A stretch of DNA of 64,000 nt from Taxawa tesnikishii (nom. ined.) (lineage: Eukaryota; Ascomycota; Dothideomycetes; Dothideales): NCBI GenBank assembly GCA_030247885.1, contig JAPDRO010000026.1, positions 62,001-126,000 on the forward strand, written 5' to 3'. This document shows positions 8,568 to 63,520 of this stretch, piece by piece (the first letter of the stretch is position 1; every line of letters begins with the position of its first letter). A model generated the notes under the pieces. It did not search any database and was not told the origin of the DNA. It worked only from the letters and a program-made list of their open reading frames with translations. Made by a program: the position numbers and the translations under genes.

Positions 8568-11500
8568 TCAGATGTACCAAGTGGTGTTAGCGAGCTTGTC
8601 GTGAACGCCACCGGTCCAGTCTGCCGTGCTGGCGTTGTACTGACTTCCAGTGTCTGAGCCGTGGTTCTCGTTCATCGCGGTATGGAGGTACTGTCTGCCA
8701 CGCTCGGCCAGGAGGTCGGCGTAGTAAGCTGGCGGACAGATAGATACCGCTTTGGTGGCACGGTTGAACAGGTAGCACAGATTGTGCGTGAATTGGACGA
8801 GCTGATTGACCTGGAACCCAATCTGGTCCATGATGACGACGTAGTGTGCTGGACGAGCTGTGCCTTGCAGGCCTTGGTGGGCTTGGAGATAGAAATCCCA
8901 CAGCCAGGCGTCGGTGATGCCACGGTCAACGTACGTGCCAGGCAGTGGGTTGCCGTTGTTGGAAGCGTCTTCCTTCTTCGTGGGATAAAAGCGAGCATGA
9001 TGGCGCTTTCCGACAACGATGATAGACATCTTGGGCCACTTCGGCTGGTCGCCGTAAACCTTCTGGAACGCTTCGCGGAAGCGTGGCAGCTCCTGCTCGA
9101 GGACCAATCTGTACTGGCCTTCAGAGACGCCGTCACGGTAAACTACGATCTTGGTCGGAAGCGCTTCGCTGTGGGTCTTCTGCCATGCTCTTAGCCTTTC
9201 GACGATCATCCTGCTAAGGCCCTCAACCATCTCTTGTCTTCCGGTCTGTACCTCCACGCTGCCTGGCCACTGGCATAGATGCTCATCCGTGCTCGCGACC
9301 ACGCAGGCAATGCTAGGTGCACCCTTGACACTGCCCGGAGACGGATGAGTAACATCGATACCCATGAGCATGGTTTGCTTATCAAGGGGCTTGCTCTTGG
9401 CCAGGGTACTGTTGCCGGTCAGAACGTGGTTGACGCCGCCGCCTTTGATGTTGAATTTGATGGCTAAGTTTCCCATGTACATCTCCTGCCCTTTGGGCTT
9501 TTGCAACTTGGAGCCCACACAGTTGATGGTTTGGATGCCGTACTTCACGTCACCGTAAAATTTGATCATCGCATAGGTGTACTTGTCATCGCCAGGCAAG
9601 ATAATGAAGAGAAGATTGAATTGGGCCTGCTCGGCTTGGCTGAAGTTTTTGTCCAGTTCCTCGTTGATTTGGTTGCGGTTGTCGTCACTAAAAGAGTTCT
9701 GAATAGTAACGTGTCTGACCCTCGGGTTGGCGTCCAGGACCAACCCGTATTCTCGTAGGGACCGAGCAAGTTTCGTAACAAGCTGGTTCTCTGGCAGCAG
9801 GGGCTCTCCGAATCGATCGTGGGTTTGAAGTGTGGGTCGGTTCGGGAGGTCGAGAACAAGAATTCCCCATTTTTTGAAACTGCCTGGCGTGTGGAATCTG
9901 GTTTGCTTGAGATTCCAGCTTCCCATGGCCGGGGTGATGACTCCGGCACTGTACTGCAGTGCAGGAGCGTTGAGAATTCTTCCATGCACGGTAAGCATTG
10001 AAGTGTTGACGCTGAAACCGAACACTTGCACGGTATCCGCTTGGTTATTCAGTCCATAGGTGACCAAGCCATTGCCAGGAGCGTTCGCAGTGCCTGCGAT
10101 GGACATTGCGTTTTCGCTAGGGGGCGTGCGGCGAAGCGAATCATGACGCTAGTCTGATTGCCACTCAAAAACTTCCTGTAGGCCTGGCCAGGAATGACCC
10201 TAGCAAGCTCCGCAGGCAGCCATGAAGGATCCCTAGCAGTTCCAGTGTTCAGAACAAGACCGCTTGGATTGAGGTTGATGTTATGCTGATTCCTGAAATA
10301 CTGCAGAACCGAAATGGGATTGCCGGAGCCGGATGGACGGAACTCAACCTGGCTGACGGTATGGCGGTTAGCGTTCACGGGAACAGCGACGATGGTCTTG
10401 ACTGTGCGAATCTTCTTGGGCTGGCCATTCTCAAGCTTGATTTTGCCAGATGCATCTCGAGCCTTGAGGTAATTGGTCTCCACCCGAATCAATTTCAGCA
10501 AAGCATGTAGGCTCTGAAGCTGTCGTTGATTCATGGGTGCATTGTTTGGCCCATGACCGAGGAACTTGTCGATTAGAACCGGCAGGTTGATTGGCTCGTA
10601 GAAGGCACCGTGTGAGACATTAAGGTTCAGCAAGATGCGGTTGGTAGAAGTGCGCACGCTGGAAAAGTACCCTCTGATAGCTTGAAGACCGGCTCCGAGA
10701 TCCATGTATTCGACGTTTGGGTGCCCTTGGGCGGGATAGAACGAATTCCGTCCGACTTGATAGATGTTGGCATGCCTGCCCGCTTGCCTGGCGATGATGA
10801 TGTTGAGCAGCTGAATGACATCTGCTCTGTCCTGATAGAACGAACCAGCAGCTGTTGCCCTGAGGTAGTTGACAAGCTCACGGGGAGTGAAGCTTCCGTC
10901 AGAGACAATGTTGACCTGCTTGGTCCTGCGCTGACGGGCTTGTTGAGCTTGCTGTGAGTTCTCATCGGCGGTGGCAGCAAGCTCATTGGCAGGGGCAGAT
11001 CTCCTGATCTCGACAGATTGCGAGATCCTTCCAGCTGGACCGAGATCCACATTCTTGTTGGTGACAATTATGTTAGCGTAATCGCTGGCAACTTTCATGC
11101 TGGCATCTTCCTGGAAAAAGGGCAAAGCAAGGACGGCATCCATGAGTTGTCTTTTCTTGACTCTGCTCAACTGCTCGACAGTGGAGACGTTGTATCTGTA
11201 GAGGCGGACCTCCCCCTTTCCTTTCTCATAGTGAGTCTCGAGGTGAAGAAAGTTTGTGCGCAAAACAATCTCTCTGCCTCCCTGATTCAAGTAGCCTGGG
11301 CGGCTGGGGTAGAGACCGTCGACAAGTTGACCTCGCTTGGCAACACGTTCATTCTCCGTCCTGGTGACATCGGCGTTGGGAGTTGCAACGGGCTTGCCCT
11401 CCCTACTTGATGTAAGTAAATGCACAAAAGCTGTGAAACGGTAATCACTCACAAGTAAACGCCGACCGCGCCACCACGGGGTCCACCACCATGGTCGCCA

Positions 11501-11760
11501 CGAAAACCACCACGTCCGCGATCGCCTCCGCCACGTCCACCGCCAAGCCCGCCACGCTCGGGGGCTGAACGATGTGGCAGTTCGCCATGGCCACCATCTC
11601 TTCCACCGCGATCCGCTCCATATCCTCCTCTTCCGCCGCGGTCGCTACCTCCGTGACCTCCACGACCACCGCGATCCCCTTCGTCACCTCTTCCGCCGCG
11701 AAAGCCACCGCGACCGCGACCGCGACCGCGACCGCGACCACGGGGTGCGTCGTCGGACAT
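8568..11760 (-). CDS. AGO: Argonaute (PAZ-PIWI) RNA-silencing nuclease
   Basis: Argonaute binds small guide RNAs and cuts complementary transcripts in fungal quelling-type silencing. Exon 1 (11760-11453) encodes an Arg-Gly-rich head with repeated RG and RGG units. A 47-bp intron (11452-11406) follows, then one long exon with ArgoN, linker and PAZ regions, MID, and PIWI. The PIWI catalytic residues are all visible: Asp in MGIDVTHP (about residue 786), the Glu finger in GRQEMVEGL (about 829), Asp in YRDGVSEGQY (about 861) and Asp in AYYADLLAERGR (about 1000), so slicer activity is expected. The frame breaks once, at the G run 10120-10124 (C on the coding strand). One more base joins FAARPPSENA to MSIAGTANAP and gives about 1048 residues, normal for the family. 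The RGG head is a likely arginine-methylation and RNA-contact region, by analogy with other Argonautes. Confidence 0.93.
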
Positions 11761-13264: not shown

Positions 13265-16200
13265 TTACTCGCCCTTCAGCTTGTCCTGCTTGACTGTGTA
13301 AGCCATCTCCAGCAGATCTTGCTCCTCCTTCATGTGCGTGCTCTTCAGACCCGTCGCCACAGACGCGCTCGGGTTACGGCCCGCGTACAGGACGTGCCTG
13401 CGGTTGTGGTGCTCGGTCTCGTTGAGCAGGGTCTCAATCCTGGGCTGCGTGAAGCTCCAAGCACCAGCGTTAAGTGGCTCTTCCTGGCACCAGACAATGT
13501 TCTTCGCGTTCGGGTAGCTGTCGAGCTCTTCCTTGAGCTGCGCCCATGGGAAGGGGTTCAGCTGCTCGATACGGATGATGGCAGCGTCGGTGATCTTGTT
13601 CTGTTGACGGTACTTGTGCAGGACCATGAAGGCTTGGCCTGTGCAGAGGATCACACGCTGTACCTCCTCCTTGGGCTGCACCTGGAAATCCTCGCCCTCC
13701 TTGTGGAACTGTTCGGGGATGATCCACTGGAAGTGCGAGTCACCAGTAAAGTCCTCGATGGACGAGCGAGCAAGCGGGTGGCGGAGAAGGTTCTTGGAGA
13801 AGAACAGGATAAGAGCTGCAGAGATACGTTAGCTTCTCGTAAGTAGTGCAGTACAAGCTGAACTTACGCTTCCTGAACTGTCTGTTCATCTGCCGCCTCA
13901 AAACGTGGAAAGTGTTCGCTGGTGTGGTCAGGTAACAGATCTGCATGTTGCAGTCCTGGTGCTGGCGGTCAAGCTTGTCAGGAGACGGGAAGATGCGAGG
14001 ATCCTGTAACCACATCAGTATTCGTCCAAGTCTTTCCGTGTCTGTCGACCGGCTCAAGGGCTTACCTCGTTGCAAAGCTGAAGGAAACGCTCCATTCTGC
14101 CGGAACTGTGCTCTGGACCTTGACCGTCGTAACCGTGAGGCATGCTCATAACAAGACCAGATCTCTGCAGCCACTTCACTTCACCGGACGCAATAAACTG
14201 GTCGATAACAACCTGAGCATTATTGGCGAAGTCACCGAACTGGGCCTCCCACATGACAAGCGCAGATGGTGATGAGAGAGAATATCCGTATTCGAAGCCA
14301 AGAACGCCATACTCACTCAAACTGGAGTTGGAGATGACGAAGCTGCCCTGATCCTTGCTGAGGTGCTGCAGAGGAGTGTAGGTAGCCTCGCTTTCCTGAT
14401 CGTGAAGCACAGCGTGTCTTTGAGAGAAGGTACCACGCTCGACATCTTGACCGGAGACACGGACGTGGTGACCCTCCAAGCAGAGGGTTCCAAACGCCAA
14501 AGCCTCGCCGGTGCTCATGTCGATGTTCTTACCATCGGTAACAGTCTTGGTGCGGTTGGCCAAAATACGCTTGAGGTTGCGGTGGACGTTGAAGTCATCA
14601 GGTGGCGTTCCGATGGTGGTACCGACGTGCTTCAAGGTCTCGGCGTCGACAGCGGTGGGGAGGTGTGGCAGCACCTCGGTAGCGAGCTCCTTGGGGCTCT
14701 TGAACCCGTTCCACGCACTGGTCAACCACTCTTTGGAGTTTGGCTGGTAGTCCTTGCTGCGGGCGAAAGACTCCTCGAGCATACCCCAAACCCACTTTTT
14801 GTGCTCGTCAATGTCCTCTTTGGTGAAGGTCTTGCCCTCAATGAGCTGGTCAACATATTTGTCCAGGACCGGCTTTTGCTGACCGATCTTCTTGTACATG
14901 AGTGGCTGAGTGAAAGAGGGCTGGTCGGTTTCGTTGTGACCCTGCTTACGGTAGCAGACGATGTCAATGACGACGTCGCGCTTGAACTCGGCACGCCAGT
15001 CGGCAGCAACCTGACAAACGTAGTTCACGGCCTCGACATCATCAGCGTTCACGTGGAACACAGGGGCGTCGATGGACTTGGCGATATCCGAGCAGTACGG
15101 GGTGGAACGCGAGTAACGGGGGTCGGTAGTGAAACCAATCTGGTTGTTCACGATGATGTGGATAGTACCACCGGTCGAGTAGGCGGGGAGAGAGTGGAAG
15201 CCCATGGTCTCGTAGACGACACCCTGGCCGGCGAAGGCAGCATCACCGTGCAGCAGAACACCCATAGCAGAGTTGGCCTCCAACTCATCGTTGTTGTAGT
15301 GAAGAAGAGCTCTTGTCTTTCCAAGCACGACCGGATCCTCAGCCTCCAAGTGGGAGGGGTTGGCGACCAGCGAGAGCTGCACACGCTTACCAGAGGGCGT
15401 GGGACGTTCGAAGTTCATACCCAGGTGGTACTTGACATCACCGGATCCCTCATCCGTGGCCTCTTGGGAACCGCCAAATTCGCTAAAGATGGACTCATTT
15501 GGCTTGCGGACGACGTTGGAGAGCACGTTCAGACGACCACGGTGAGGCATACCAATGACAATGTCCTTCACGCCATAGTCAACGCTACGGTCAATAAGCG
15601 CCTTCATGCCAGGGATCAAAGACTCGCCTCCCTCCAACCCGAAACGCTTGTCGTTCGGGTATTTGGTTGCAAGGAAAGACTCGAAGCTGGAACCCCAGAT
15701 CAGACGATCCAGAATCCTCCTCTTCTCGTCGACAGAGTACTTGTATGGGGCTGGGACCTCGATACGCTCACGCAACCAGTCGCATTGTTCCCTGTCCGGG
15801 ATATGGATGTATTCGACACCGTAGCTTCCGCAGTAGAGCCTTTCGCAAGCATCGATAATCTCACGCAGTGTCATCTTCTGCCTGTTCTCTGTCCTGAAGC
15901 GGGGCAAGATACCGGGGCCAAGCTCGAATTCCTGTTGCATATCCGCGTCGGTGAATCCATAGTGGTCCAGCTTAAGTTCTGGTGGGTTGCTGTAACCGAA
16001 CTGGCTGGCTTCGTTGCGGATGCCAAGGGGGTCGATGCGGGCCTTGTGATGTCCTCTTGCCTGGTACGCGCGCACCAACAGTTGAATCTTCAAGTGGTTG
16101 GAAATGTTGGGGTCCTGTCCAGCTGCAGCAACGGCACCCGCCGCGAAACCAGGAGCAGCACCCTCGGGCGCTGGGACAATGGTAGGAGGAGGCTGAAAGG

Positions 16201-16607
16201 CCTGGGAAACGGGCATGCCGCCCTTCTCCATGTTGCGGAAGTAAACCTGCCATGAGATGTGCACAGAGGAAGGATCGCGCTTCCATTCCATGTACATTTC
16301 ATCGATATAGTTGGCGGTGTTGCCCTGGAGGAACGAGTCGTTTGGGTCCTGAATCAGCTATTAGCGGAACGGACGCTTTACCCGATCTTTGAAGGCGTTC
16401 TAAGCTCACCACACCCTTGTTTGTATCCTCAGCAGAGATGGCATAACTCCTCCGAGACACGTGCTGTGTAGCGAGCGCAAGCTCCCTTCTCTTCGAAACC
16501 AGGGATGATGTAGGTCGTTCTCTGACGATGGTGGAGAAGCTTGCTCGCGAGTAGGCACTGCCTCCAACGAGGCGTCTGCCACATTGCTGGAGGGTGGTCC
16601 GCAGCAT
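13265..16607 (-). CDS. KGD1: 2-oxoglutarate dehydrogenase E1, mitochondrial
   Basis: This is the thiamine-diphosphate E1 component of the 2-oxoglutarate dehydrogenase complex. It decarboxylates 2-oxoglutarate in the TCA cycle and passes the succinyl group to lipoyl-E2 in the mitochondrial matrix. Four exons (16607-16410, 16348-14066, 14003-13868, 13815-13265) join in frame to 1055 residues, the usual length. The start has an Arg/Ser-rich mitochondrial presequence. The mature part contains [14 protein letters not shown], the E1 core [11 protein letters not shown], the thiamine-diphosphate region with [13 protein letters not shown] and [12 protein letters not shown], the pyrimidine-binding domain ending near [16 protein letters not shown], and the C-terminal domain with [17 protein letters not shown]. 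Introns are 61, 62 and 52 bp with standard ends. Unlike many neighbours, this gene has no frame break. A long open frame on the opposite strand is only its shadow. Confidence 0.97.
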
Positions 16608-19436: not shown

Positions 19437-19953
19437 CGGATCCAGGAGCTGGAGTAGTCAACCGGTAAAGGGTGGGCAAGGGGAGAGGGGGTTACGTGTC
19501 CGTGTCAGAGTTGCTTTTCTGCAAATGAGATGAACAGCTCGCAAGTGTTCCCCAATGCAGCAGCTCAATCGTCGTTTCAACCACGTGGAAGTGAGATAAT
19601 TGACATGCCAAGGAAAAAGTGTCAGGGTCTCTGCCTTGGAAAGTCGCACCACCCCGCCTCCATCATTCTTGGGCCATAGTTATATGCGGTACGTATTATG
19701 CGAAACTATTGACTCCCCATGCATACTACGAAAACCTGATATCCTGTGTTCACAACTACTGCCGCCCACCTCAGCCCACCCGAGCCTCTGACCCGAATTG
19801 CTACGCACCGCCACCCGAGGCAACGATCACCGTCGGTCGCATGCTTGCCTAGAAAGACACACTGACGTCGCCTATACGGCTTCACAGAGCTCCTTCCAGC
19901 ATCTTTCTCCAGCTTCACGGACACCTCTGACATCCAGCTCCACGCTTCCGGCC
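19437..19953. promoter_or_regulatory. Shared divergent promoter, F-box-like gene and acyltransferase
   Basis: About 517 bp separate two divergent genes, so both promoters must lie here. I see no clear TATA box or repeat. The acyltransferase ATG sits in a good context (GCCATGG). Confidence 0.5.
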
Positions 19954-22458
19954 ATGGCCATATCCTGGCTCGACATCACCTACGATGCCTTCCTCTGGAC
20001 CTTCTCGGTGCTGATTGACCTCTTCTTCCGCGAAGTGCACCCACGCAGTTCCTGGAAAGTGCCACGAAAAGGTCCCGTCCTGGTCGTGGCCGCCCCTCAT
20101 GCCAACCAATTCGTCGACCCGCTCATCCTCATGCGCGTTCTGCGCCATGATGCCCAACGCCGAGTCTGCTGGCTGATAGCCGAGAAATCGACTAAAAGAA
20201 AGTTCATCGGGTTTGGCGCGCGCATGACAGGATCCGTGCCCGTGGGACGAGCGCTGGATGCGAAGAAGCCCGCCGAAGGGAAGATATACCTGCCGGATCC
20301 AGAGGGTGATCCGACGCTAGTGAGAGGTGTGGGCACGAAATTCGATCATCCGGATTTCCAGGTCGGTGGGTTGTTGATTTTGCCGAGTGTGAAGAACGAG
20401 AGCGCGAATACAGAGATTAGGGAGATCTTGGGTCCGGAGGAGATCAGGGTCAAGAAACCGTTCAAAGGCGATGTTGCGTTGAGGCAGCTCACGGGTCAGG
20501 ATGTGTATGACAAGGAGGGGAATGTTTTGGATGGGCATGTAGAGAAGAGGGTCATGGATGGGTTTAAGGGAAGCAAGTTTAGTGTTGCGCCTAAGGTCGA
20601 TCAGACGGGCGTGTACGACGCTGTCTTCAAAAATTGCATGAAGGTGGTTGTATCGGCATCTTTCCGGAAGGCGGTAGCCATGACCGGACGGAGTTGCTCC
20701 CGTTGAAAGGTTCGTGTATATATTCTGCATCTCATGCGGCCACAACCACTGACAACCACAGCCGGTGTCGCTATTATGGCTCTTGGTGCTCTGGAAAAGG
20801 ATCCCGACTGCGGCGTCAAGATCGTCCCGTGTGGCATGAACTATTTCCACGCCCACAAGTTCCGTTCCCGGGCGGTGGTAGAGTTCGGCACGCCCGTCGA
20901 GATTCCCAAGGAAGTCGTAGAGATGTACAAGAGAGGAGAGCGTAGGGAAGCCATCGCCTGGGTTCTGGATACGGTATATCAAGCATTGGTAACGGTTACC
21001 GTGACCAGTCCAGATTACGACACGCTCATGGTATCTACGTTTTGTGTTCGGGCGATTCAAGATTGTGCGCTGACACTTGCCAGCTCATCCAAGCCGTCCG
21101 CCGCCTCTACAATCCTAAGGGCAAAAAGCTTCCCCTACCCATGATCGTAGAGTTAAACCGACGACTGGTAAAGGGCTACACGACCTACAAGGACGACCCC
21201 GTATCATCGAGCTGAAAAAGAATATCCTTGCCTACAACCGGCAGCTTTTCCAGCTCAACATCCGCGACCACCAACTTAGCTACGCCAAATTCTCCATCGG
21301 AAAAGTCATCTTCACCCTCTTGTACCGTCTGGGCAAACTGGCCGTTCTCAGCACAGCTGTGCTTCCCGGAACAGTGCTCTTCGCGCCCGTATTCATTGCT
21401 GGAAAGGTAATTTCGATTAAGAAGTCCCGCGAGGCCCTGGCCGCGTCGACCGTCAAGATACAGGGGCGCGACGTCATGGCAACGTGGAAGTTGCTGGTGA
21501 GCATGGCGCTCGCCCCGATCTTGTACACGTGGTACACATTCCTGTTCACGTACTGGACGTACCGCAACCGCGCGGGCGGACGAGTACCGGAGTGGGTTCC
21601 ACTGTGGGGCATCGTTCTCTTCGGCTACGTTTTCTTCCCCGCCATCTCGTTCGCCTCGCTCCGTTTCGGCGAGATCGGAATGGATATTGTCAAGAGTCTA
21701 CGCCCGCTGCTGCTGAGTTTGAATCCGCAGAGCAGCAACTCCCTCGTCAAGCTGAGGGAGCAGCGCGCGGTACTGGTCGAACAGGTCACCGATGTCATCA
21801 ACGAACTCGGTCCAGAGCTGTATCCGGACTTCAACCACCAACGCATCATCGGCGACCCCTTCCACCCGCTCTCCCCGGTCACTCTCGCCCAGGTACCCCC
21901 AGCAACCGCCGCCGCAGCGGTTCAAACATGCGCTCAGACCTTGATACTCTTTCCATGTCCTCGCCTTCCAGTCCCGAGTCCCCTCAATTCCGCCGCTCGC
22001 AGACCGCTGGCGCCGGCATCGGTGGTGGCTCAGGACACGGAAGCGACCAATTGCCGCGCAATGAGAGCTTCAAGAATCTCAGCGGGATCGGACTGTTTGC
22101 GAGTCGCCCGGCTACGCCGACGGGGAGGAGTCGGTCAAGGACGAACTCGCAAGGTGGGCTGGGATCTGGTGGGGTCAAGCCGATGACTGTCGGCGGTAGG
22201 GAGGGGCTGAGTAAGGATGGGATCGATCAATTGGGAGAGAAGATCCGGGGAGCCATGAGGGAGAGGGGACGTAGGAGGAAGAGTGGGAGTGACGGGGATG
22301 GTGGGTGGGATTTCACGGACGGGGCGGAGATGCCGGTTACGGATTTCGAGCCTGGGGGAGGCAAAGAAGGACATTTAGCTTGTTGGAGATTGAGGGTTGA
22401 TGTTGGAGTGTATGGGAGCGTTGAAGTCATGGATAACGAAGCTTTCGTGCTGGTTTAG
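19954..22458 (+). CDS. Glycerol-3-phosphate/dihydroxyacetone-phosphate acyltransferase
   Basis: This enzyme of the Sct1/Gpt2 family acylates glycerol-3-phosphate in the ER membrane, the first step of phospholipid and triacylglycerol synthesis. The start MAISWLDITYDAFLW is typical. Acyltransferase block I is AAPHANQFVDP (the HX4D type, here H-A-N-Q-F-V-D), and block III is IFPEGGSHDRTELLPLKAG. The C-terminal half has membrane segments (LLVSMALAPILYTWY; VPLWGIVLFGYVFF) and a Ser/Arg-rich cytosolic tail. Introns are 20710-20761 and 21031-21083. Three frame breaks close by one base each: the A run 20629-20633, the C run 21197-21200, and one of the C runs 21873-21876 or 21896-21900. With these the product is about 800 residues, normal for the family. 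The last 40 residues of the tail are less certain. Without correction the gene would be called as three or four fragments. Confidence 0.92.
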
Positions 22459-23183: not shown

Positions 23184-24853
23184 ATGATGAGTAAGTCCCG
23201 AGTTCCCCGTTCCATCCATCCATCCATCCATCAATCAACCCATCCATCCATCCATCCATCCACCCACCACCCGCACCGTTTCGATACAACCGTCCATCGA
23301 CAGCGCTGCGCTGCTCCCACGGCCAGCCACCGCCAAGCCACTCCCTCTGTCTCGTCACCGTCACTCGCGCACACCGCCAGACTGACAGGTACCACAGAAA
23401 GGATCCGCCACAAATTCCATCAAGAAGGCCGCGTCGGGCCCAAGGGCAGGACAACCATGCCTCGCGACATCGAAGGTCACCCGGACGAATCCACCTCCCT
23501 CCTGCCCAACGGGGCTCCTCGCGCCTAGGCAATCTCGCCAATCTGGGCCCCGCGCGCCCATCTCACCACTCCGACGATGAAAGAGCTTGGGTCAGGTATC
23601 CCATGCGCTTCTTGAGCACTACGTGGGCCGTTCTTGCCAGCAACTACGTTAATGTGCTGCTGGTGTTTGTGCCTGTAGGGATCATCTTGGGCGCCCTGGA
23701 CATGGACCCAACGGCTGTGTTTGTGGTGAACTTTTTGGCCATCATTCCGCTTGCGGCGCTGTTGAGCTTTGCGACGGAGGAATTGAGCGTCAAGCTAGGG
23801 CAGACGATCGGTGGGTTGATGAATGCGACGTTTGGCAATGCTGTTGAGTTGATCGTTCGTCTCCCGACCTGCCCCGTGTCTGCGCAGACGTCTGAGCGCT
23901 GCGCTGCGCTTGCGAGAGATGGGAAGGCAATGGCTGATGTGAGATAGGTCTCGATTGTGGCCCTCCGTCAGGGTGAAATCCGCATCGTGCAGAGCAGCAT
24001 GCTCGGCAGCATCCTGTCCAACATTCTGCTCGTGCTGGGCTGTTGCTTCATAGCAGGAGGCTTCCGACGGCAAGAACAGACATTCAACGAAACCGTCGCA
24101 TCGACCATGTCCTCGCTCATGGCCGTCGCATCCGCCTCCCTCATCATCCCGGCAACGCTCTACGCGGCGCTCGCCCGCTCCTCGGCCTCGTCCGACGACA
24201 ACATCCTCATCCTCTCGCACGGCACCGCCATCATCCTCCTGCTGCTCTACATCCTGTACCTCGTCTTCCAGCTCAAGACGCACGCGCGACTCTTCGACGA
24301 GGCCGAAGACACCAACGAGGGCGGCGAGCACAAAGAACCGGAAATCCTGACGCCCGTCCCGGCCGCCATTGCGCTCGTCATCGTGACTGTCATGGTCGCC
24401 GTCTGCGCCGAGTACCTAGTCGACAGCATCGACGCCATCGTGCAAACCGCGCACATTTCCAAAACCTTCATCGGTCTCGTGCTCCTCCCCATCGTGGGCA
24501 ACGCCGCCGAACACGTCACCGCCTGCGTCGTGGCGTACAAGAACAAGATGGACCTCGCCATGGGCGTTGCCATTGGCTCTTCGATGCAGATTGCGCTCTT
24601 CGTCACCCCGTTCCTGGTCATTCTGGGCTGGATCATCGGACAGCCGATGACGTTGCACTTCCAACTCTTTGAGACGGTGGTGTTTTTCCTCTCTGTGTTG
24701 GTGGTCAACTACCTCATCCAGGACGGAAAGAGCAACTACCTCGAGGGCTCCATGTGTTTGGGCATGTACATCATCATCGCCCTCGCCTTCTACGTGTACC
24801 CGGACGACGCGGGTGACCCGACTGGAGAGGCGCCCAAGTTGTTCGGATGGTAG
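23184..24853 (+). CDS. VCX1: Vacuolar Ca2+/H+ exchanger (CAX family)
   Basis: This is a CaCA-superfamily antiporter that moves Ca2+ into the vacuole in exchange for protons. Exon 1 is only 7 bp (ATGATGA), then a 198-bp intron (23191-23388) full of CATC repeats, exon 2 (23389-23854), a 93-bp intron (23855-23947) and exon 3. The joined start reads [17 protein letters not shown], followed by [12 protein letters not shown], a usual N-terminal motif of fungal Vcx1. Both alpha repeats are clear: [20 protein letters not shown] with [11 protein letters not shown], and [22 protein letters not shown] with [16 protein letters not shown]. About eleven hydrophobic segments and a short acidic loop ([16 protein letters not shown]) follow. 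The frame breaks at the G run 23511-23514; one more G joins LLPNG to [11 protein letters not shown] and gives 459 residues. If the first intron is not used, MPRDIEGH at 23458 is an alternative start. Confidence 0.9.
23211..23268. repeat. (CATC)n microsatellite inside intron 1 of the exchanger gene
   Basis: A tetramer tract of CATC, with slight interruption (CAATCAACC), fills the first third of the 198-bp intron. It begins about 20 bp after the donor site. Confidence 0.9.
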
Positions 24854-41850: not shown

Positions 41851-42833
41851 ATGCGTACAACTGCATACACCGCTGCCATCCTGGCCGCTTGTGCCGCAAA
41901 CGCCACTGCGAAGCCAGTGAGCACCACCACCGCGAACAACCATGCAGTAGCCACGCCGGGACCAAACAATCTCGCTGTTGGCCATTCGGCCGACAACGCC
42001 GCACCTAAGAACAGCCATGCCAACGATCATGCGTTCGAGGACGAGACGCACAAAGGAGAGGCCAAGGGTGGTGAGGTTGACATCTCTCATGAGGGCTGGA
42101 GCTGGGGATATTGGGGCCGCCACACGTCGAGCAGCTCCGCAGTGCCTAGCTCCACATCTGCTGTGGAGAGCGTTTCCTCCCCAAGGCTTCATCGACCGCG
42201 GAAAGCTCGGTCACTTCTATTCCTGCAAAGAACTCCAACACTGCCGTTCCTGTGAAAAGTTCGGCTACGGAGAAGAGCTTTTCAACTGCGAAGAGCACCG
42301 TTTCTGTGAAGAGCTCCATCAGCACCATCCCAGAGAAGAGCTCTGTTACCTCAACTCCCGAAAAGAGCTCCTCCGCTGTGAAGAGTGCTTCGACAACCGC
42401 ACTCGCTTCCACTGTCCCAGCGCACACCAGCAGCGTCCATTCGTCTGGCAGCGAAGTGGCCTCCAGCGCCGCGTCTATCTTTACCATCACAGTCACCTCC
42501 ACCATCGTGCCCTCCAGCACTGAAGCGGTCCTCAGCAGCAGTACCGCTCTCATTCTCCCGTCTAGCCTGGCCACAAGCTCCAGCATCAGCCCCATCGGGA
42601 CTTCGAGCGCTGCAACGTCGATCGCCAGCGCTCTCGCAATCTCCAACCTGTCCACCAGCACGCTTCTCGCAAGCATCATCGCCTCGTCTAGCTCCTCTCT
42701 CAACACCACCACCACCACCGCCGCCGCTGCCGCAATCACTAGCACGATCACCAGCCACTCGTCCATCACGTCCACAGCTACCCCAGTCTCTGCAGACTTC
42801 CTTAACTATGGGAACTCCACCAGCACTCATTAG
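41851..42833 (+). CDS. Secreted Ser/Thr-rich protein
   Basis: The start MRTTAYTAAILAACAANATA is a clear signal peptide with cleavage likely after NATA or TAKP. A short His/Asn/Asp-containing segment with WSWGYWGR follows. The rest is a Ser/Thr/Ala/Val-rich tail with imperfect repeats of the type EKSSVTS/VKSSIST (PEKSS three times) and a poly-Thr/poly-Ala stretch. This composition suggests heavy O-mannosylation and a wall or matrix location. There is no C-terminal hydrophobic GPI signal, so it is probably free or trapped in the wall. The frame breaks in the C run 42179-42182; one more C joins ESVSSPKASS to TAESSVTS and gives 327 residues. I do not recognise a named family. Confidence 0.72.
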
Positions 42834-47749: not shown

Positions 47750-49247
47750 TCAGCTCAATCCAAATCCCATGCCCCAAACCAACGCCCCCAACGCCGCAAC
47801 CAGCGCAACCGTGCCCGCCTTCTCTTCTTTCGCCCGATACACGACTCCATCAGCAGCATTAGCATCGGCACTCTTACTAGAACGAGAAGTCTGCTGCGCC
47901 CCGAACCAGCACTACTATCCGCGCTCGTCGTCGCGGCCGCGCTCGGATTGAGCGTACTGGTTGGCGCATCTTCAATCTTGACGCTGTCTTGCCTCATCAG
48001 AGCCGGGGCATCGCTGATCAACAACGCCTGCACGACCTCTAACGCGCTCAACTCTTGTCCAACACCATAGTTCCCATCATAGGCGCCCGTATACCACTTG
48101 GCACCGCACGTAACGCCGTCGTTGCCACCCGAGCAACTCCTTGCTGCGGCTTGCGCGGAGGTGTTCAGCATTGGCAGGACGGCTGAGCGGGTGAAGGGCG
48201 CCACTATGGTGGTCTTGGCGAGCCAGCGCGCCATGTACGCTTTGAAGGAATACTGGTCGTAGTTGCACGTCCCCTGGGGTTCGCAACTCGGTTCGGAGAG
48301 CACGTTCGAGGCGTTGGAGTACTCGTGGAAGAAGCTTCGGTTTGCAGCTTGCAAAAGTCCGGCGGTGCGGTCGGCCCAAATGGTGGAGGCGTTGGTGTAG
48401 TTGTACAGGATCGCGGTGCCGTAGATGAAGATGGCCGGGTTGTAAGACCAGAGAGTGTGGTCCTGCCGCGTGCAGTTGATCGTGTCGTCCGTGCCGTCAT
48501 AGACATCGAAGTTGGGGCCGATCAAGCCGACTCCTTGGGTCCAGTCCCAGATCTTTTCCGCCCATTCATAGTACGTGCTGTTGCCGGTATAGTGAGCCAG
48601 ACGAGCCGCGATCTGGAAGAATCCCCGTTGGAGATGCTGTTCTTGTAGTCGTAGCCGGCGTTGTATGCAAATATCTGCCATTTAAGTCCTCCATTACAGC
48701 TCGTCATGTCCCAGCGCGGTACCATAGTGTTGAAGACTGCCTCTGCAAGCTGTAGCCACTGCGGGCTCCCCTGTGGCGGATCGGGAAAGCCGTACTCGAG
48801 TGCCGTAAGCACGGCCGTCGCCCAGAACGCCTGGTCGTCATTGCCCAAACTCGAGAAGTACGCTGGCGGCATGTAGTTGTTGTCCGGTCCAACTTGTGCC
48901 AGCAGCGCTTGGGTGATGGTAGGGTTGTAGCTTGTGTCGTTTGTGTAGGCCCAATAATCGATCATGGCGCCCCATACCGCGCCCGCTTCCCACCAGTACG
49001 AGGGCGCAGGGAGCGTCCCAATGGCGGTTTCGGCGGTAGAGGATTGGTTGTTCTGGTACCAGGACATGACACCGTAGGCGAGGGTGGACGAGGCATTACG
49101 AAGAGATGCTGTACGGACATCTGGTCAGTTAGACGCCATGGAAAGAGAGCGCTGGGGGCAGGTACCTGGGGATGTCAGGTCAAGTTGAAGGGCGTTCGTC
49201 AACTGCAGACCAGCTGCAGCGGCTGTGATGGCAGTAGGGATGCGCAT
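47750..49247 (-). CDS. GPI-anchored GH76 endo-1,6-alpha-mannanase (Dfg5/Dcw1 type)
   Basis: Dfg5/Dcw1 proteins act at the plasma membrane and link GPI-mannoproteins to wall glucan. Exon 1 (49247-49166) has the signal peptide MRIPTAITAAAAGLQLTNA. After a 57-bp intron (49165-49109), exon 2 contains YWWEAGAVWGAMIDYW, the catalytic Asp pair in LGNDDQAFWA, TSCNGGLKWQIFAYNAGYDYKN, TQGVGLIG, YNPAIFIYGTAILYN and TCGAKWYTGAYDG. The end VALVAALGALVWGMGFGLS is a GPI-attachment signal after an Ala/Ser-rich stretch. This tail appears only in a shifted frame. Two breaks each close with one base: the C run 48623-48626 (ISNGG-FFQIAARL) and the C run 47899-47902 (SAGSGAQQTSRS). Corrected length is 480 residues, normal for the family. 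Several Asn-X-Ser/Thr sites are present. Confidence 0.92.
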
Positions 49248-53400: not shown

Positions 53401-56400
53401 ATGATGCAACCACGATGGCTGCTTACTCTGGTGCTGCTCGCCCAGACGGCGCCTGCCTTGCGTTACGATGAACGATACGTGGATCATAACCTGAACATGA
53501 ACCAGGACACTGCCAACCCGTTGGACTACTATACTCTTTACGACAACCACACATACTTTCCTAGCCCGGCGAACTGGCGGTTTCCTTTCTACAGCTTCTT
53601 TATCGACCGTTTCGTGAACGGTGACCCTACCAATGACAATGCGTTAGTTTGCAGTCTTGCGTTACTCAGTGGCTGTGGTTCGCTGACAATATGGCAGTAA
53701 TGGAACCCACTGGGAGCACGACCCTACCGGGACTCAGCTTCGGCACGGTGGCGATGTCCAGGGCGTCCTTGACTCTATCGACTACCTTCACGGACTCGGA
53801 ATCCGTGGTCTTTACCTCGCCGGCTCCTTGCTCTACAATTTCCCTGGTCCTCTGATTCTTACAGTCCCCTAGATCACAGTCTCCTGGATCAACACTTCGG
53901 CACCATTAAGCAATGGCGGGAGGTCGTTGATGCGCTGCACGCAAGAGGCATGTACGTGATTGTTGACAACACAATGGCCACGATGAGCGACTTGATTGGC
54001 TTTCAGGGTTATTTGAACGAAAGTACTCCCTGGTCTTTCAAGGAACACAACGCCCTTTGGAAATCTGATCAGCACTACTCTGATTATTCCTTCGACAACA
54101 CCTGGTACGATGAGTGTCCAGAGCCATACCCACGATTCTGGGACCAAGGAGGACACCGCATCGATGATTATAACACCTCCAAGATGGTGGGCTGCAGAGC
54201 CAGTGAGTTCAACCAGTACGGAGACGTGGGTGCATTCGGAACCTACCCCGAATGGCAGAAGCAGCTGTCCAAGTTCAATTCTGTCCAGGATCGCCTTCGC
54301 GATTGGCGGCCGTCTGTCCTTTCGAAGATCCAGCACTTCTCCTGCATGATCATCAAGGGTTTGGACGTTGACGGATTCCGCATCGACAAGGCCATGCAAG
54401 TTACTGTTGACTCTCAAGGCAACTTTTCACACGCTATGCGAGAGTGCGCTCATTCTGTCGGCAAGCACAACTTCTTCATCCCTGGAGAAATCGTCAACGG
54501 CAATGCAGACGGTGCCATCTACCTTGGCCGTGGAAAAGAGCCCACGATGGCTTTCGACAATTTGACCGAGGCCATTCTCACGAATGGAACCTACATTAGA
54601 GATGACCAACATCACGCGCTGGACGCTGGTGCCTTTCAGTATACCACCTACCGAGGCCTTATGCGGTTTCTGGGTATGGATGGTGATCTTCTGGCTGCGA
54701 ATGACGCTCCGGTCAACTTCATTGATGCCTGGCATGTCATGATGGCAACAAACGACTTTGTCAACGCGAACAACGGAGAGTACGATCCGCGTCACATGTA
54801 CGGAGTTTCCAACCAGGATGTTGTCAGATGGCCAGGATTGATCAACGGAACGGAGAGACAGCTGGAGGGAGCCTTCATCACGACTTTGCTGATGCCTGGT
54901 ATCTCGATGGTGTCTTGGGGTGAGGAGCAGGCCTTCTATGTGCTGGATAACACAGCGGACAATTACGTGTACGGCAGACAAGCGATGACTTCCTCCAGGG
55001 CCTGGCAACTTCATGGGTGTTACTATGTCGGAGATGAAAACCTCTCCACCTTCCCGGTCAACAGCTCCTCTCACGGCTGCAAGGATGATTCCGTGTCCCT
55101 TGATCATCGCGATCCGACGAGTCAGGTCTACAACACCTACAAAATGATGTTCGAGATGAGACGTCGATACCCAGTTCTCAACGACGGATTCGGGGTTGAC
55201 CAGCTCTCGAAGCACACCTGGAACTACACAATGGCCGGATCTTTCGGCATCCCTACTGAGACTGGTGTTTGGAGTGTACGCAGGTCCGCATTCGACGGCG
55301 TTCAGGACTTCAGTGGCATCGCTGCAGGCAATCAGGACGTCTGGCTCGTGTATTCCAACTACAACGACACAAGGGATTGGGAGTTTGACTGCAACAGCAC
55401 AACTGGCCATGCTCTGATTTCTCCATTCGACGAGGGGACCACCGTCAAGAACTTGTTCTACCCTTTCGATGAGTGGACTCTCGAAGCTTCTCGATACAAG
55501 CTTGGTGTCAACGGTTCGACGGAATACAACGGCTGCCTTCCTCGCATGAACCTGACGAGATACGGATACAAGGCATTTGTTCCCGTTGATGCCTGGCAAC
55601 TTCCTTCTCCAGTCATCACGAAGCTGATCCTCAACGACACTTACGTTGGTCACGACCAGAGAATCCTTTCCAGCGTCGGTAGGGAAGAGCAAGAGGCTCT
55701 GACCATGGAGCTTCGCTTCTCCGCTCAGATGGACTGTGATTCTGTGCGCAATTCGCTCAACATCACGTCCACCACCGAGGATGGCTCGCAGGCGCAGATC
55801 AACGTCGACAGCGTCGACTGTCTGACCGTCGATCCCGACGACATGCCGATTTACTACGGCGCTGTACCGTCTATCTGGAGATACAAGGCTAATATCACCG
55901 GCATCTCGAATGGTATTCACGTCATTTCAATCAACAACGCGACCTCCCAATCAGGCGCCTTCACCGACTCTCTGGACAAATTGATGTTCCGCATCGGTCA
56001 AAGCGAGAACCCCATGATATTCCCAGCGACGGCCAACTACAGTTCAACGCTGCTTTACAAGCAGGATACCACAAAGCGCGCAACGGAAGAGGAGTCCGGC
56101 CTTTACGTTGCACACAAGGCTCCCGGTGCAGACAGATGGCGCTACACAACGACCTGGGGTAGCACTTGGTCCGAATGGCTGCCCTACAATGGCGGAAACT
56201 CCACCCTGGAGAAGCAGTTCTGGAGTGGCACCAAGAAGCAACAGTGGGAAGGCGACCACGTCAGGATCCAATACTGGTCCAAAGCAGCGGGCTCCAGTGA
56301 CCATATCCAAGAAGCCGATTTGTCTGGAGGAAACAATACCGCGCGCCGTTTCCCTCATCTCTTTATTCATGGCCCGTTCAACCAGTATGGCTACGACGCT

Positions 56401-59400
56401 GGGCTGAACACTGAAATGAAATTCATTGGCAATGGCCAATGGGAGTACGATTTTATGACGGAATGGCCTGCGCAGTTTCAGGTCAATGTTTGGGGCATGA
56501 ACCCCGACGGCGTGCCGGATACCACTTTCGCCTACGGTGATGTTGACAACGACACCGTCCTGGACAGGATTGCACCAACGTCTCTGGAAGAGAGCGTTGT
56601 AAATATCACCAACCTCGGACCTGATTCGCCCCATCTCGCTTGGAAGATCCATGTCAACGATGGTGACCATCGCTTCACCCTGATTCCTGTTGGCAACCGC
56701 TGGAGGCAACTTGCACTGTGGATCTTGCTCGCCATCATTCCTGTCGTGACTGCTGTTCTTGGTGTATATGGGTACCTCAGGGCGTTCTACCAGGTCAAGT
56801 TCAACCAGATCGGCTTGAGTGAGGCAAAGAGTGTGCTTCCGCTCGCGATTAGAAGGAAGCTGAATCGCAGTGAGATTCTCAAGGAGAGGGAAAGTCGTCC
56901 ATCGACCCCGGATAGCAGCGCAGCAGGCTCGGTCATTGTTGATGGTATGAGCACTGTCGCACCAGGAACCACTATTGGTGCTGCCGTCGTCGCGCCCCGC
57001 AGGACTGTGCTCATTGGAACCATGGAGTACGACATTTCCGACTGGGGCATCAAGATCAAGATCGGCGGCCTAGGTGTCATGGCTCAGTTGATGGGGAAGA
57101 ACCTTCAACACCAGGACCTCGTTTGGGTTGTACCCTGCGTTGGTGATGTGGATTACCCCGTCGATACACCCGGCGAACCTGTGGATGTGACTGTGCTTGG
57201 CAAAGTGTACGAAGTGCAGGTGCAATATCATAAGCTTGAGAACATTACTTACATGCTTCTCGATGCGCCTGTCTTCCGTCGTCAGACCACAAAGGAACCC
57301 TACCCTGCTCGCATGGACGATCTCGACAGCGCCATCTATTATTCAGCTTGGAACCAGTGCATTGCCGAAGCTTGCAGGAGATTCCCTATCGACCTTTACC
57401 ACATCAACGACTATCACGGAACGGTGGCTCCACTTTACCTTCTCCCGCAAACTATTCCTTGCTGTCTGTCTCTGCACAACGCCGAGTTCCAGGGTCTCTG
57501 GCCCATGCGGAATCCAAAAGAAGTGGAGGAGATCTGCTCGGTCTTCAACCTGCCGGAGAACGTTGTTTCCAAATACGTTCAGTTCGGTGAGGTTTTCAAT
57601 CTGCTGCATGCCGGTGCCAGCATTCTTCGCCTGCACCAGAAGGGCTTCGGTGCCGTTGGCGTTAGTAAAAAGTACGGCAAGCGATCCTGGGCTCGTTACC
57701 CCATCTTTTGGGGGTTGAACAAGATCGGCGCTCTCCCTAACCCGGATCCTTCAGACGTTGCTGAATGGGATAAGAAGCTTGCGGATCCTAAAGATATCGC
57801 CATTGACCGCGAGTATGAGAATTCCCGTGCCGATCTCAGACGCCAGGCCCAAGAGTGGGCAGGTCTTGAAGTCAAGCCTGATGCGGACCTCTTCGTCTTC
57901 GTTGGTCGATGGAGTATGCAAAAGGGTATCGATCTTATCGCGGACGTCTTCCCTGCCATCCTGGAGCAAAATCCGAACACGCAGCTGATCTGTATTGGTC
58001 CAACAATCGATCTTTACGGAAAATTCGCCGCTCTCAAGCTCGACAAGATGATGAAGAAATATCCAGGCCGCGTGTATTCAAAGCCTGAGTTCACGGCTCT
58101 CCCGCCGTACATTTTCTCTGGTGCCGAGTTTGCCCTCATCCCTAGTCGTGACGAGCCCTTCGGACTTGTCGCCGTCGAATTTGGTAGAAAGGGCGCTCTC
58201 GGTGTTGGATCCCGTGTTGGTGGTCTGGGCCAGATGCCGGGATGGTGGTACACTATCGAGAGCCAAACGACGAAGCATCAGATGCAGCAGTTCAAGATGG
58301 CTATCCACGGTGCCCTCAAATCTGATTACGAGACGCGTGCCACAATGCGTGCTCGGTCAGCCAAACAGCGCTTCCCTGTCGCACAATGGAAGGAGGATCT
58401 CGAGATTCTGCAGTCGACATCCATCAAGATCCACGATAAGCGCATGGCCAAGGCGCAAGAACGCAAGAGGCTTGGCGTTGCGACCGGCGCAACCACGCCA
58501 GCTGGCAGTGGCTGGAACACTCCTCATCTTCCCGGCTGGATGACACCTAGATCTGGATGGGCAACCCCTACTGGAATGACCACTCCATGGAACAGGACAC
58601 CCGTCTCCAGTAGACCTAACACAAGACCATCCTCTCCGGTCAGAACAATGCCCAACTCCGTTGCTAACTCTCCAGCAGTCTCCCGGTCCAACTCCTTGTC
58701 TTTGGGTACCAGAGCAGGCCCCGGACACTCGGTTTACGGGAAGCAGAGCTTTTCCAATTCGCGCCCAAGTCTGGGATCTCGCAGGAACTCCCTTGAGGTT
58801 CCAGCCGGTGGTGCTCGGCCTCTGAGCCGTATTGAGGACGAAGAGGTTGCCATCAGTCAGGAGGATGCCCAACATGCCCAACGTCAGTCCAGGTACGAGG
58901 CAATGGGGTCTTTTGACTTCAGGGCGCACAACAACGAGCCACAGCCAGGAATGCTAGGCGCGCCCCAGCCCGTTTTCTCCCCACTTGCTACTCCCGGCAT
59001 GATCACGCCACAGGCGTCTTTCCCGTTCCTCCTCGAGCCATACACACCACTTCGATCAAACACGCCAGAAGCGCCACTGAGTACGGAGAGAATCCTCAAT
59101 GAGAAGGAGAACAAGCAACCTCAAGATCTTACGCCGTTCTTCGTCGACACCACTGGTCTTTACTATCGAACCTTTGAGAGGATGCTCGATAATCTTAGCG
59201 CCAAAACGTCTGAAAGCTCGTTGTGCATTGAGACATATCTTGAGAAGAGTGAAAAGCAGTGGTTCAACCGCTTGCACGATGCCAAAATGTCCAAGGCCGA
59301 CCTCGCAGGCAGCACCGCTGTGAACTCGCCTGCGGGTTCCATCTTCAACGAACCGGTCGACGCTGAAGAGGAACCCATGTCTCAATTCTTGCTTCCAGAG

Positions 59401-60735
59401 AACTACAAGCCGCCAACCGGCCTGCGCCGCCTGATGATGTACAAGATCGGAGATTGGCCTGTTTACTCGTTCCTCCTGGCTTTGGGTCAGATCATCGCCG
59501 CCAACTCATACCAGATCACGCTCTTGACCGGACAAATTGGAGAAACGGCCACCGAGCTGTACGTCGTGGCATCCATCTACCTGGCCGCATCTCTGATCTG
59601 GTGGTTCATCTTCCGTCGATTCGCTTGCATGTACGTGCTCACGGCGCCGTGGGCCTTCTATGGCTTAGCTTTCTTCCTTCTCGCCATGGCGCCCTACGCC
59701 TCGAGTACCAACGGGCGGGGCTGGGTCCAAAACGTCGCCACCGGACTCTACGCTTTCGCGTCCGCCAGCGGATCCTTCTTCTTCGCTCAAAACTTCGGCA
59801 GCACGGGCTCTGCACCCGTCAAGACGTGGGGCTTCAGAGCATGCACCATCGCCGGAACTCAGCAGTTGTACATTGTCGCGCTGTGGTTCTGGGGCAGTGA
59901 GCTCGACGCCGCCAGCGCAAAGGGCAAGACCGCATCCAGCCTCGTCACCTATGGTCCTACAATCACCGCCATCTGCGTGCCTGTTGCGATCCTGCTATGG
60001 GCCATCGGACTGGTGCTTTACTTCGGTCTGCCCAACTTCTACCGACAGGCGCCCGGTGGCGTACCAAGTTTCTATACGGCCGTCATGCGCCGCAAGATCA
60101 TCGTCTGGTTCTTCATCGCCGTCTTCATCCAGAACTACTTTCTCTCCGCCCCCTACGGCCGCAACTGGAAGTACCTCTGGAGCTCCGACCACGCGCCCGG
60201 CTGGGCCATTTTCCTGCTCATCCTGTTCTTCTTCGTCGGCGTTTGGGCCCTCATCCTCTGGTACTTCTCCCGCCTCTCCGTCACCCACTCCTGGTTCATT
60301 CCCATCTTCGCCGTGGGCCTCGGCGCCCCAAGGTGGTGTCAGATGCTCTGGAGCACAAGCGGCGTCGGCGCGTACCTGCCCTGGGCCGGCGGTCCCGTGC
60401 TCTCCGCCCTGCTGGGGCGTGGGCTCTGGCTCTGGCTCGGCGTTCTCGATTCCCTGCAGGGTATCGGCTTCGGCATGATCCTCCTGCAAACTCTGACGCG
60501 CTTCCACATCACCTTCACGCTCATCGGCGCGCAAGTTTTGGGCTCCGTCGGGACGATTTTGGCACGTGCGACCGCGCCGGACGCGACGGGTCCTGGAAGC
60601 GTGTTCCCGAACTTTGGACTGGATTGGAGGGCGGGGCTCGCGAGCCATAATTTCTGGATCTGTTTGATCTTCCAGGTTGCGGTCTGCGTGGGCTTCTTTA
60701 CGTTCTTTAGGAAGGAACAGTTGAGCAAGCCGTAG
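53401..60735 (+). CDS. ags1: Cell-wall alpha-1,3-glucan synthase
   Basis: This very large membrane enzyme makes alpha-1,3-glucan from UDP-glucose and exports it to the wall. The start MMQPRWLLTLVLLAQTAPALRYDE is a signal peptide followed by the usual NWRFPFYSFFIDRF segment. A GH13-like outer domain has DVDGFRIDKAMQVT and FFIPGEIVNG. A membrane helix (ALWILLAIIPVVTAVLGVYG) lies near residue 1085. The cytosolic GT5 synthase domain has KIKIGGLGVMAQLMGK, CLSLHNAEFQGLWP and the IPSRDEPFGLVAVEFG motif. A Ser/Pro/Thr-rich linker with GWxTP-type repeats follows, then about ten membrane helices (from YSFLLALGQIIAANSYQITL onward) forming the presumed export channel. One intron (53643-53697) was found. 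The frame breaks once, in the C run 53842-53844; one more C gives NFPWSSDSYSPLDHSLLD and a total of 2426 residues, the normal size. A start at 53356 is possible but would mask the signal peptide. Confidence 0.96.
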
Positions 60736-61820: not shown

Positions 61821-61948
61821 GGGAAGGATCACGCGCCGCGGGGTGTGTGAGTGATGGTTGTCAATTGGTTGCTGCGACTCTGATGGACCGCCGGGTCTGG
61901 TTCGATGATTTTTGTTTTCTTTGTTTCCCTTGGGCAAAGTCAAGGGGT

Positions 61949-61950
<2 letters not shown>

Positions 61951-61984
<34 letters not shown>
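61951..61984. repeat. (GT)n dinucleotide repeat
   Basis: A perfect GT run of about 34 bp. Confidence 0.95.
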
Positions 61985-61986
<2 letters not shown>

Positions 61987-62764
61987 AGACTTGTGTAAGC
62001 GTTCGCGTTGCTCAGGTGAGGTACAGTGTTGATGTTGATGCGTGGAGAAAGGTGCCGGAGCCGAGTCCATCCGGTCTTGATTCCCGTGTGGTGGGGAGAT
62101 GGCTGAAGTGGTGGGCTGGCACGGAGTCGTACTCCGATTCAGTGCCGTCTTCACCCTCTTGCGTCGGCATCACAGACGTGACAGCATGGAAGACGGCTGA
62201 GAAACGTTCGAGACATTGGCTAGACAGAGAAGCAAGTTCTGGACGACACGTGGGATGAGTATGGTGTTGTGAACATGGTATGTATGGCGACTGCGCACAA
62301 AAGTGCCGTCAAAAAGCCTTGCCATTCATGTGCTATCTAAGGCGTCTTCACCTTTGTTAGGCGGTGGTATAGTTTCCGTTTTCCATCCGTGTACGCCAAG
62401 TCAACGTAAGAAAAGTGAAGCGACAAGCCAGCAAACCAGCCGTGCTGCCTAGTGTGCTGGCTTGTGCCTTTGCTGTCTTCCCGAGAAGGAAACAACGAGT
62501 GAAGGTTGGTTCTTTCCTAAAAGACTGAACCAAGTAAACGAGCCTCCGTGTTTCCCCGCCCAATATCCCGACCTGCAAAAGAGCCGCTCTGGGGTTCTTG
62601 GGTCTGCATGTGGTATCTCGAAAATACGAAATGTGCTGAATGATTCCGAAGAAGAGAACGCCGTTCGCTGTGCTTGTGTCGCAAGTTTTTGATGACCGAA
62701 TCGTGATGCTGGTGTCACTTTCAATGTGAGAGGAACCGATAACGATGAGGTGATTTCACCATCA

Positions 62765-63520
62765 TCAGCTGCTGGTGGAGGAAGTCGGCGAGTGGTGGCT
62801 CCGTCTCGCTTCCTCTTGGATCAACTTCTCCACCAACTCGTCCGAGTGCGTGCCATCCACCTCCCTCGACGCTCTGGCGCCAGCAGTGAGATAGCCGTCC
62901 GCTCCTTCAAGCTCGAGCGGTGTAACGGGGCCCGGACTACCCAAGGGCACCAGGCTGGGAGTCGTTGGATTGTCGCGTGGTGGAGGCATGGAGCCTCGGT
63001 GCAGGGCTAGTGTCTCGCGCTGGTAGAGGTAGAGCTGCTTCTGCGCTTCACTGTACATGCGCTGCTGTGCACGTGGGGATACGGGCGGCTGAGGGCTGTT
63101 GGGCCCCGTCGCGGGCGTATTAGCGGTCGACGAGTGCTGCGAGGCGAAGACGGCGGGGTGGAAGCGGGGAGTGAATGCAGCTTTGGCGCTCCTGGTCGTC
63201 GCGGTGCCGTGTTGGCGCTGCGCGGGTGCAGTCCTCCCCGGGCGGCTGGTGGGAGCATCATGCCGTCGTGTCTAACTGGGGACTCGAAGCGTGGTGAGAG
63301 AGGGGTGGTGGGCCGGAGCGCTGGGGACGAGCGTGGAGAGGGCATCCTGGCGCGAGGAGAGAGAGGACTGCGGGACGGAGACGGGGATATTCCTCGAGAA
63401 GGAGCCGTCGTGGGCAGAGCGCTGCGGGAGAGTCTTTCTATCTTGTCGGCCAACTTGGTGCTACCGGGGGCAGACGCCGTGCCCCAGCGGAGGTCGATGG
63501 TTGTACGTAGTTATCTAAGG
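62765..63520 (-). CDS. Unknown Ser/Pro-rich protein, 5' end unresolved
   Basis: The reading runs through TIDLRWGTASAPGSTKLAD, KIERLSRSALPTTAPSR, SPSPSRSPLSPRARMPSPR, RFHPAVFASQHSSTANTPAT, PNSPQPPVSPRAQQRMY, SEAQKQLYLYQRETLALHR, LGSPGPVTPLELEGADGYL and an acidic/Ser end. The SP and SPR sites suggest phosphorylation by proline-directed kinases. I do not recognise a family, though the LYLYQRE and GSPGPVTPLELEG segments look constrained rather than random. The frame breaks in the C run 63236-63239; one more base continues PPAARGR into TAPAQRQHGTAT. Upstream of about 63520 there is a stop on this frame and no ATG, so the first exon or exons, or a further break, remain undefined. An internal start at MPSPRSSPAL is possible but unlikely, because the reading before it also looks like coding sequence. 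Confidence 0.6.

What the first reader, a model, noticed from the sequence alone, without database searches (positions are those of the whole stretch)
8568..63520. One-way, one-base losses in homopolymer runs break ten of fifteen protein genes
Reading homology through each break gives a single pattern. Breaks lie at G run 10120-10124 (Argonaute); A run 20629-20633, C run 21197-21200 and a C run at 21873-21900 (acyltransferase); G run 23511-23514 (Ca2+ exchanger); G run 26356-26360 (DUF1989); G run 30095-30098 and C run 31348-31351 (SREBP); C run 42179-42182 (Ser/Thr-rich protein); a TC run near 46750 (GH3); C runs 47899-47902 and 48623-48626 (GH76); C run 53842-53844 (glucan synthase); and C run 63236-63239 (unknown protein). 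All fourteen need exactly one added base and none needs a base removed. After that every well-bounded gene closes to a whole number of codons and a normal family length. True decay would give mixed indels, stops and substitutions, as the P450 remnant does. The likely cause is homopolymer under-calling in the assembly.
Basis: partly seen in the sequence, partly recalled or inferred. Interest (0 to 1): 0.72.

Follow-up and report, generated by a model that had tools for sequence, protein, structure and literature searches.

The report
Assembly errors breaking fungal genes
Many genes in this fungal stretch look broken most likely only because the assembled sequence is one letter short in runs of identical letters, an ordinary and documented sequencing artefact that also turns up elsewhere in this genome.

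Summary
All fourteen reported reading-frame breaks in this window (part of contig C19 of a 29.37-Mb, 34-contig fungal assembly) shift the frame in the one-base-loss class. The evidence is strongest at GH76 and Argonaute and weakest at the Ca2+ exchanger and the unknown protein. A codon-model scan of the window plus 25 ten-kb stretches from 24 contigs called 30 loss-class and 1 gain-class breaks; on artificial genes it found planted losses and gains about equally often (34/60 and 28/60). Of 29 located losses, 22 contain a run of four or more identical bases, against 8.05 expected. Elsewhere in the genome a chaperonin (PF00118), an HSP70-like and an MCM gene show the same loss-class break without an intron-sized gap; only six MCM loci were found, so a real break there should be lethal. 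Best explanation: genome-wide homopolymer under-calling in a long-read assembly. Hidden introns, true decay and recoding fit worse. The cause is known, so interest is low. No reads or second assembly could be examined, and the species was not identified.

The parts
8568..11760 (-). Argonaute gene (ArgoN, ArgoL1, PAZ / ArgoL2, Mid, Piwi) with one loss-class break, located to 10101-10147
   Evidence: Pfam pieces in two frames; PDB alignment runs to about 10115 in the first frame; scan
19954..22458 (+). Acyltransferase gene with three loss-class breaks, near 20629, 21193-21208 and 21886-21954, plus introns
   Evidence: Pfam Acyltransferase in the first piece; scan calls the last two; first break from three-frame translation by eye
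23457..24853 (+). Na+/Ca2+ exchanger family gene, probable loss-class break near 23511 (weaker evidence; gene start judged by eye)
   Evidence: Pfam Na_Ca_ex in 23948-24850; three-frame translation; not called by the scan
25931..28016 (+). DUF1989 gene with lysine-rich insert, loss-class break within 26308-26382, intron about 26626-26753
   Evidence: Pfam pieces; scan; three-frame translation
28710..31650 (-). SREBP-type bHLH regulator (HLH + DUF2014), two loss-class breaks, within 30088-30111 and 31300-31367
   Evidence: Pfam pieces in two frames; scan
41851..42833 (+). Ser/Thr-rich secreted-type protein, loss-class break near 42179 (start judged by eye)
   Evidence: three-frame translation: signal-like start in one frame, S/T-rich part in the next; not called by the scan
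44763..47287 (+). Glycoside hydrolase family 3 gene with introns, one loss-class break within 46720-46768
   Evidence: Pfam names the family; the break rests on scan and three-frame translation
47755..49067 (-). Glycoside hydrolase family 76 gene, loss-class breaks within 48613-48638 and near 47899
   Evidence: contiguous Pfam and PDB hand-off for the first; hydrophobic C-terminal tail in another frame for the second
53401..60735 (+). Alpha-glucan synthase-type gene (alpha-amylase + starch synthase domains), intron about 53643-53697, loss-class break near 53842
   Evidence: Pfam; three-frame translation reads across 53808-53872, judged by eye with a recalled motif
62765..63510 (-). Protein of unknown family, probable loss-class break near 63236 (weaker evidence; extent from two overlapping open pieces)
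   Evidence: open pieces and three-frame translation only
13265..16607 (-). 2-oxoglutarate dehydrogenase, no break seen (internal control)
   Evidence: Pfam N- to C-terminal domains across called introns

Best explanation
The breaks are consensus errors of a long-read assembly. Runs of identical bases, in this window mostly G or C runs now read as three to five long, are reported one base short at a small fraction of sites across the genome, so open reading frames shift in one direction. The genes in the organism are very probably whole. Shown: direction, occurrence elsewhere in the genome, association with runs, presence in genes expected to be essential. Inferred: that reads would show the longer runs, and that the platform was nanopore-like with no accurate short-read polishing.
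For: Loss-to-gain 30:1 in 58 modelled genes over 120 kb; near-equal power for both signs on artificial genes and 0 shift calls in 60 genes without an error. 11:0 and 4:0 at stricter penalties. 22 of 29 located losses contain a run of 4 or more against 8.05 by chance, maximum 14 in 500 draws; 8 contain a run of 5 or more against 1.34, maximum 5. Loss-class switches without an intron-sized gap in a PF00118 chaperonin gene (G run of 4 at the join), an HSP70-like gene (A run of 4 at the join) and one of the six MCM loci found. No G/C run of six or more in 86.5 kb of long open frames; 28.7 expected by codon shuffling, minimum 17 in 100 shuffles. On accurate E. coli K-12 the scan with introns off made 18 calls: 17 within 48 nt of an annotated CDS end and one in prfB, a natural frameshift gene.
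Against: No reads, transcripts or second assembly were available. 7 of 29 located losses have no run of 4 or more; by a recalled MCM motif the MCM join is at a very short run, although the overlap of its two matches also touches two runs of four. One gain-class call exists. With introns off the ratio drops to 40:14. The scan leans to losses in E. coli too, 14:4 with introns off and 8:3 with introns on, through fused neighbouring genes. Long G/C runs are scarce in E. coli also, 2 against 10.9 expected. Conserved domains gave only three gapless switches in 103 match rows from seven families, a lower rate than the scan suggests.
Confidence: 0.94

Rival explanations
1. Unrecognised introns: the frame changes are ordinary splice junctions and not lost bases.
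For: The scan at the middle penalty placed introns over several sites (Argonaute 10117-10172, glucan synthase 53808-53872, acyltransferase 21201-21244). The SLAC1 frame change is best read as an intron. In 60 artificial genes with a planted loss the scan made 25 false intron calls, so the two are easily confused.
Against: Those three candidates have poor splice donors. Argonaute homology runs across its candidate. GH76 hands over with no gap in DNA or protein. The chaperonin and HSP70-like pieces likewise abut. Introns would give both shift classes.
Confidence: 0.03
2. True decay or a mutator strain: real one-base losses in homopolymers, for example after loss of mismatch repair.
For: Mismatch-repair loss is known (recalled, not tested) to favour one-base losses in runs.
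Against: One of only six MCM loci found and a chaperonin gene are hit, and the runs involved are short. Decay apart from the shifts was not tested systematically.
Confidence: 0.02
3. Programmed recoding: ribosomal -1 shifting or transcriptional slippage at short runs restores the frames, so the DNA is correct.
For: The direction is the one such recoding would need.
Against: About 22 located breaks hold a run of four or more, while gene spans hold roughly 1,043 such runs (the gene sets differ slightly), so recoding would have to ignore nearly all of them. Runs of four G/C are not known as strong slippage sites (recalled). Recoding would not by itself shorten long G/C runs.
Confidence: 0.01

Closest known systems
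Nanopore assemblies of the fungus Drechmeria coniospora (PMC7500977; passages read)
   Same: Homopolymer length errors break reading frames of conserved fungal genes; short-read polishing corrected them.
   Different: There the errors were more often over-lengthening of runs; here nearly all called errors are losses.
Nanopore assemblies of filamentous ascomycetes (PMC9453082; passages read)
   Same: Names homopolymer indels as the main accuracy problem, leading to frameshifts; in three BUSCO genes inspected, indels fell with read depth.
   Different: Raw data were available there; here only the assembly.
Gene-fragmenting errors in long-read assemblies (Kastor, PMC12007338; search listing and start of abstract only)
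   Same: Frameshifts and premature stops from long-read errors that make false pseudogenes.
   Different: A detection and correction tool for small genomes; not used here.

Membership tests
Homopolymer under-calling artefact of long-read assemblies | Frame breaks in the loss class | tested here: met
   14 of 14 window sites (eight of them by eye); 30:1 by scan
Homopolymer under-calling artefact of long-read assemblies | Breaks lie in or beside homopolymer runs more than chance | tested here: met
   22 of 29 against 8.05 expected; 7 of 29 do not
Homopolymer under-calling artefact of long-read assemblies | Genome-wide, including genes expected to be essential | tested here: met
   12 of 25 sampled 10-kb stretches hold at least one located loss; PF00118, HSP70-like and MCM genes
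Homopolymer under-calling artefact of long-read assemblies | Deficit of long runs in the assembly | tested here: inconclusive
   0 G/C runs of 6 or more against 28.7 expected in long open frames, but E. coli also shows a deficit; G/C runs of exactly 12 and 13 do occur genome-wide, 25 and 22
Homopolymer under-calling artefact of long-read assemblies | Accurate reads show longer runs at the sites | not testable with these tools
   No reads held
Spliceosomal introns (as cause) | A gap in DNA but not in protein, with splice signals, at each break | tested here: not met
   GH76, PF00118 and HSP70-like joins have no DNA gap; not tested to this standard at every site
Pseudogene decay | Indels of both signs, stops and substitutions | tested here: not met
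   30:1 direction bias; stops and substitutions not tested systematically

The most novel reading that the evidence does not exclude
The DNA is correct and the fungus routinely restores frame at short homopolymers by transcriptional slippage or -1 ribosomal shifting, including in chaperonin and replication genes.
Probability: 0.01. Interest if true: 0.9.

Novelty: not a real feature. Interest (0 to 1): 0.1.

Why it matters
It is a warning and not a discovery. Gene-loss or pseudogene claims from this assembly would be unsafe: on the scan's figures (30 calls in 120 kb of gene at a power of about 57%) there may be roughly one false break every two to three kilobases of gene, though conserved domains suggest fewer. 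The test used here (shift class plus run enrichment) needs no reads and could flag other assemblies.

Tried and rejected
Rejected: a window-specific cause (losses occur at a similar rate elsewhere). Rejected: an intron at Argonaute 10117-10172. Rejected as a counter-example: SLAC1 near 37886, read as an intron. Rejected as evidence: the tRNA-synt_1 frame change on C1 near 574083, which by eye looks like an intron. Not resolved: the other frame changes between adjacent family matches, which by eye have DNA gaps of 25 nt or more and were taken as introns without checking each one. A seeming excess of exactly-13 G/C runs in my sample (4 in 314 kb) is not a genome-wide peak (22 of length 13, 25 of length 12). 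One paper search aimed at identifying the assembly listed two papers, neither fitting by title. A plasmid search with 1.2 kb of the window found nothing.

Limits of the scan: the 25 stretches were picked by coordinates and not at random, and one adjoins the window; genes scoring under 20 are left out; 26 of 60 planted losses were missed, many turned into false introns, and 8 false introns appeared in 60 error-free genes; the E. coli run shows that adjoining genes can be fused with a false shift. The model was trained on the same sequences that it scanned. Intervals were computed only for genes that end at a stop codon. In the E. coli control the distance of each call to the nearest CDS end was judged by eye from the tables.

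Full report
Setting. The window is C19:62001-126000 of a 29,367,862-base, 34-contig genome. Its genes carry fungal-type domains such as DUF2014 with HLH, GH76, and an alpha-glucan synthase-like architecture. The tool stated that this genome has no relatives held, so tests had to be made inside this assembly, against Pfam, and against solved structures.

Check of the sites. All listed runs are present. Open pieces were matched to Pfam separately. Frame arithmetic gives class 2 (one base missing, modulo three) at all fourteen sites: one search covers twelve and the two later acyltransferase sites. Eight of those twelve rest on frames judged by eye in the translations, where the motifs used for the acyltransferase, glucan synthase and GH3 proteins are recalled and come from no alignment. 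Homology to known proteins decides two cases. GH76: the two pieces align to residues 38-200 and 201-413 of 6ry0 and meet on the DNA. Argonaute: the first frame aligns to an Argonaute-1 chain up to about position 10115, across the whole of the candidate intron 10117-10172. For the SREBP-type regulator the HLH and DUF2014 domains lie in different frames, and the scan placed the switch without an intron. For DUF1989 and GH3 the Pfam pieces are also separated by introns, so those breaks rest on the scan and the translations.

Scan. I wrote a three-periodic coding model with introns, stops and one-base shifts of either sign at equal cost. On the window and 25 ten-kb stretches chosen by coordinates (314 kb) it called 30 losses and 1 gain at the permissive setting, 11 and 0 at the middle, 4 and 0 at the strictest. 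Artificial genes with a planted loss gave loss calls in 34 of 60; with a planted gain, gain calls in 28 of 60; with none, no shift calls in 60. With equal odds, 31 calls would split 30:1 or better toward loss with probability about 1.5e-8 (my arithmetic); with the measured powers, about 2e-7. Intervals could be computed for 29 losses; 22 contain a run of at least four bases against 8.05 in random intervals of equal length, and 8 contain a run of five or more against 1.34. Window: 8 losses; sample: 21 located losses in 12 of 25 stretches.

Accurate control. On 100 kb of E. coli K-12 the same scan, introns off and permissive, made 14 loss and 4 gain calls. Against the annotation, 17 of these 18 lie within 48 nt of an annotated CDS end, where tightly packed genes are fused by the model. 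The remaining one is in prfB, whose CDS is annotated as joined from two pieces and is a known natural frameshift (recalled); it was called with the gain sign. With introns on there were 8 losses and 3 gains. So the scan has a loss bias of its own in packed genomes. The run enrichment, the gapless domain-level breaks and the 30:1 ratio go beyond it, but it must be borne in mind.

Conserved genes elsewhere. Seven families were searched in the whole genome (103 match rows). Three pairs of matches follow each other in the profile, abut or overlap on the DNA and change frame: a PF00118 chaperonin gene on C1, an HSP70-like gene on C3, and one of the six MCM loci found, also on C3. All three are loss class. 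The first two have a run of four at the join. The MCM matches overlap over 37 bases that touch two runs of four, but a recalled conserved motif puts the join at a very short run. Other frame changes had, by eye, DNA gaps of 25 nt or more and were taken as introns. This rate is lower than the scan's.

Run lengths. In 86.5 kb of long open frames there is no G/C run of six or more, 28.7 being expected after codon shuffling, and 6 A/T runs against 19.8. In E. coli the figures are 2 against 10.9 and 41 against 54.7. A shortage of long G/C runs is therefore partly natural, and this line is supportive only. In gene spans there were 81 G/C runs of five, none of six to twelve and one of thirteen.

Literature. 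The phenomenon is documented. In three nanopore assemblies of the fungus Drechmeria coniospora most errors in conserved genes were in homopolymers and altered the frame, and short-read polishing corrected run lengths (PMC7500977, passages). A study of filamentous ascomycetes names homopolymer indels as the main accuracy problem (PMC9453082, passages). In the first the errors were more often over-lengthening, unlike here.

Verdict. The breaks are most likely not in the organism.

Noticed in passing
   Followed up: no
25931-28016: The DUF1989 gene carries a long lysine- and glutamate-rich insert: profile positions 3-38 match near 25949-26056 and 34-168 only from about 26952.
   Followed up: partly
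L024:1946, L025:6862, L026:5403, L028:2012: Four of the 22 exactly-13 G/C runs listed for the whole genome lie in the five 10-kb stretches fetched, far more than expected; no cause found.
   Followed up: partly
18639-19457: An open piece with modest 2EXR (E 1.8e-6) and DUF7730 (below its cut-off) matches.
   Followed up: no
about 23195-23280: A low-complexity stretch upstream of the exchanger gene reads as repeated His-Pro-Ser-Ile-like units.
   Followed up: no
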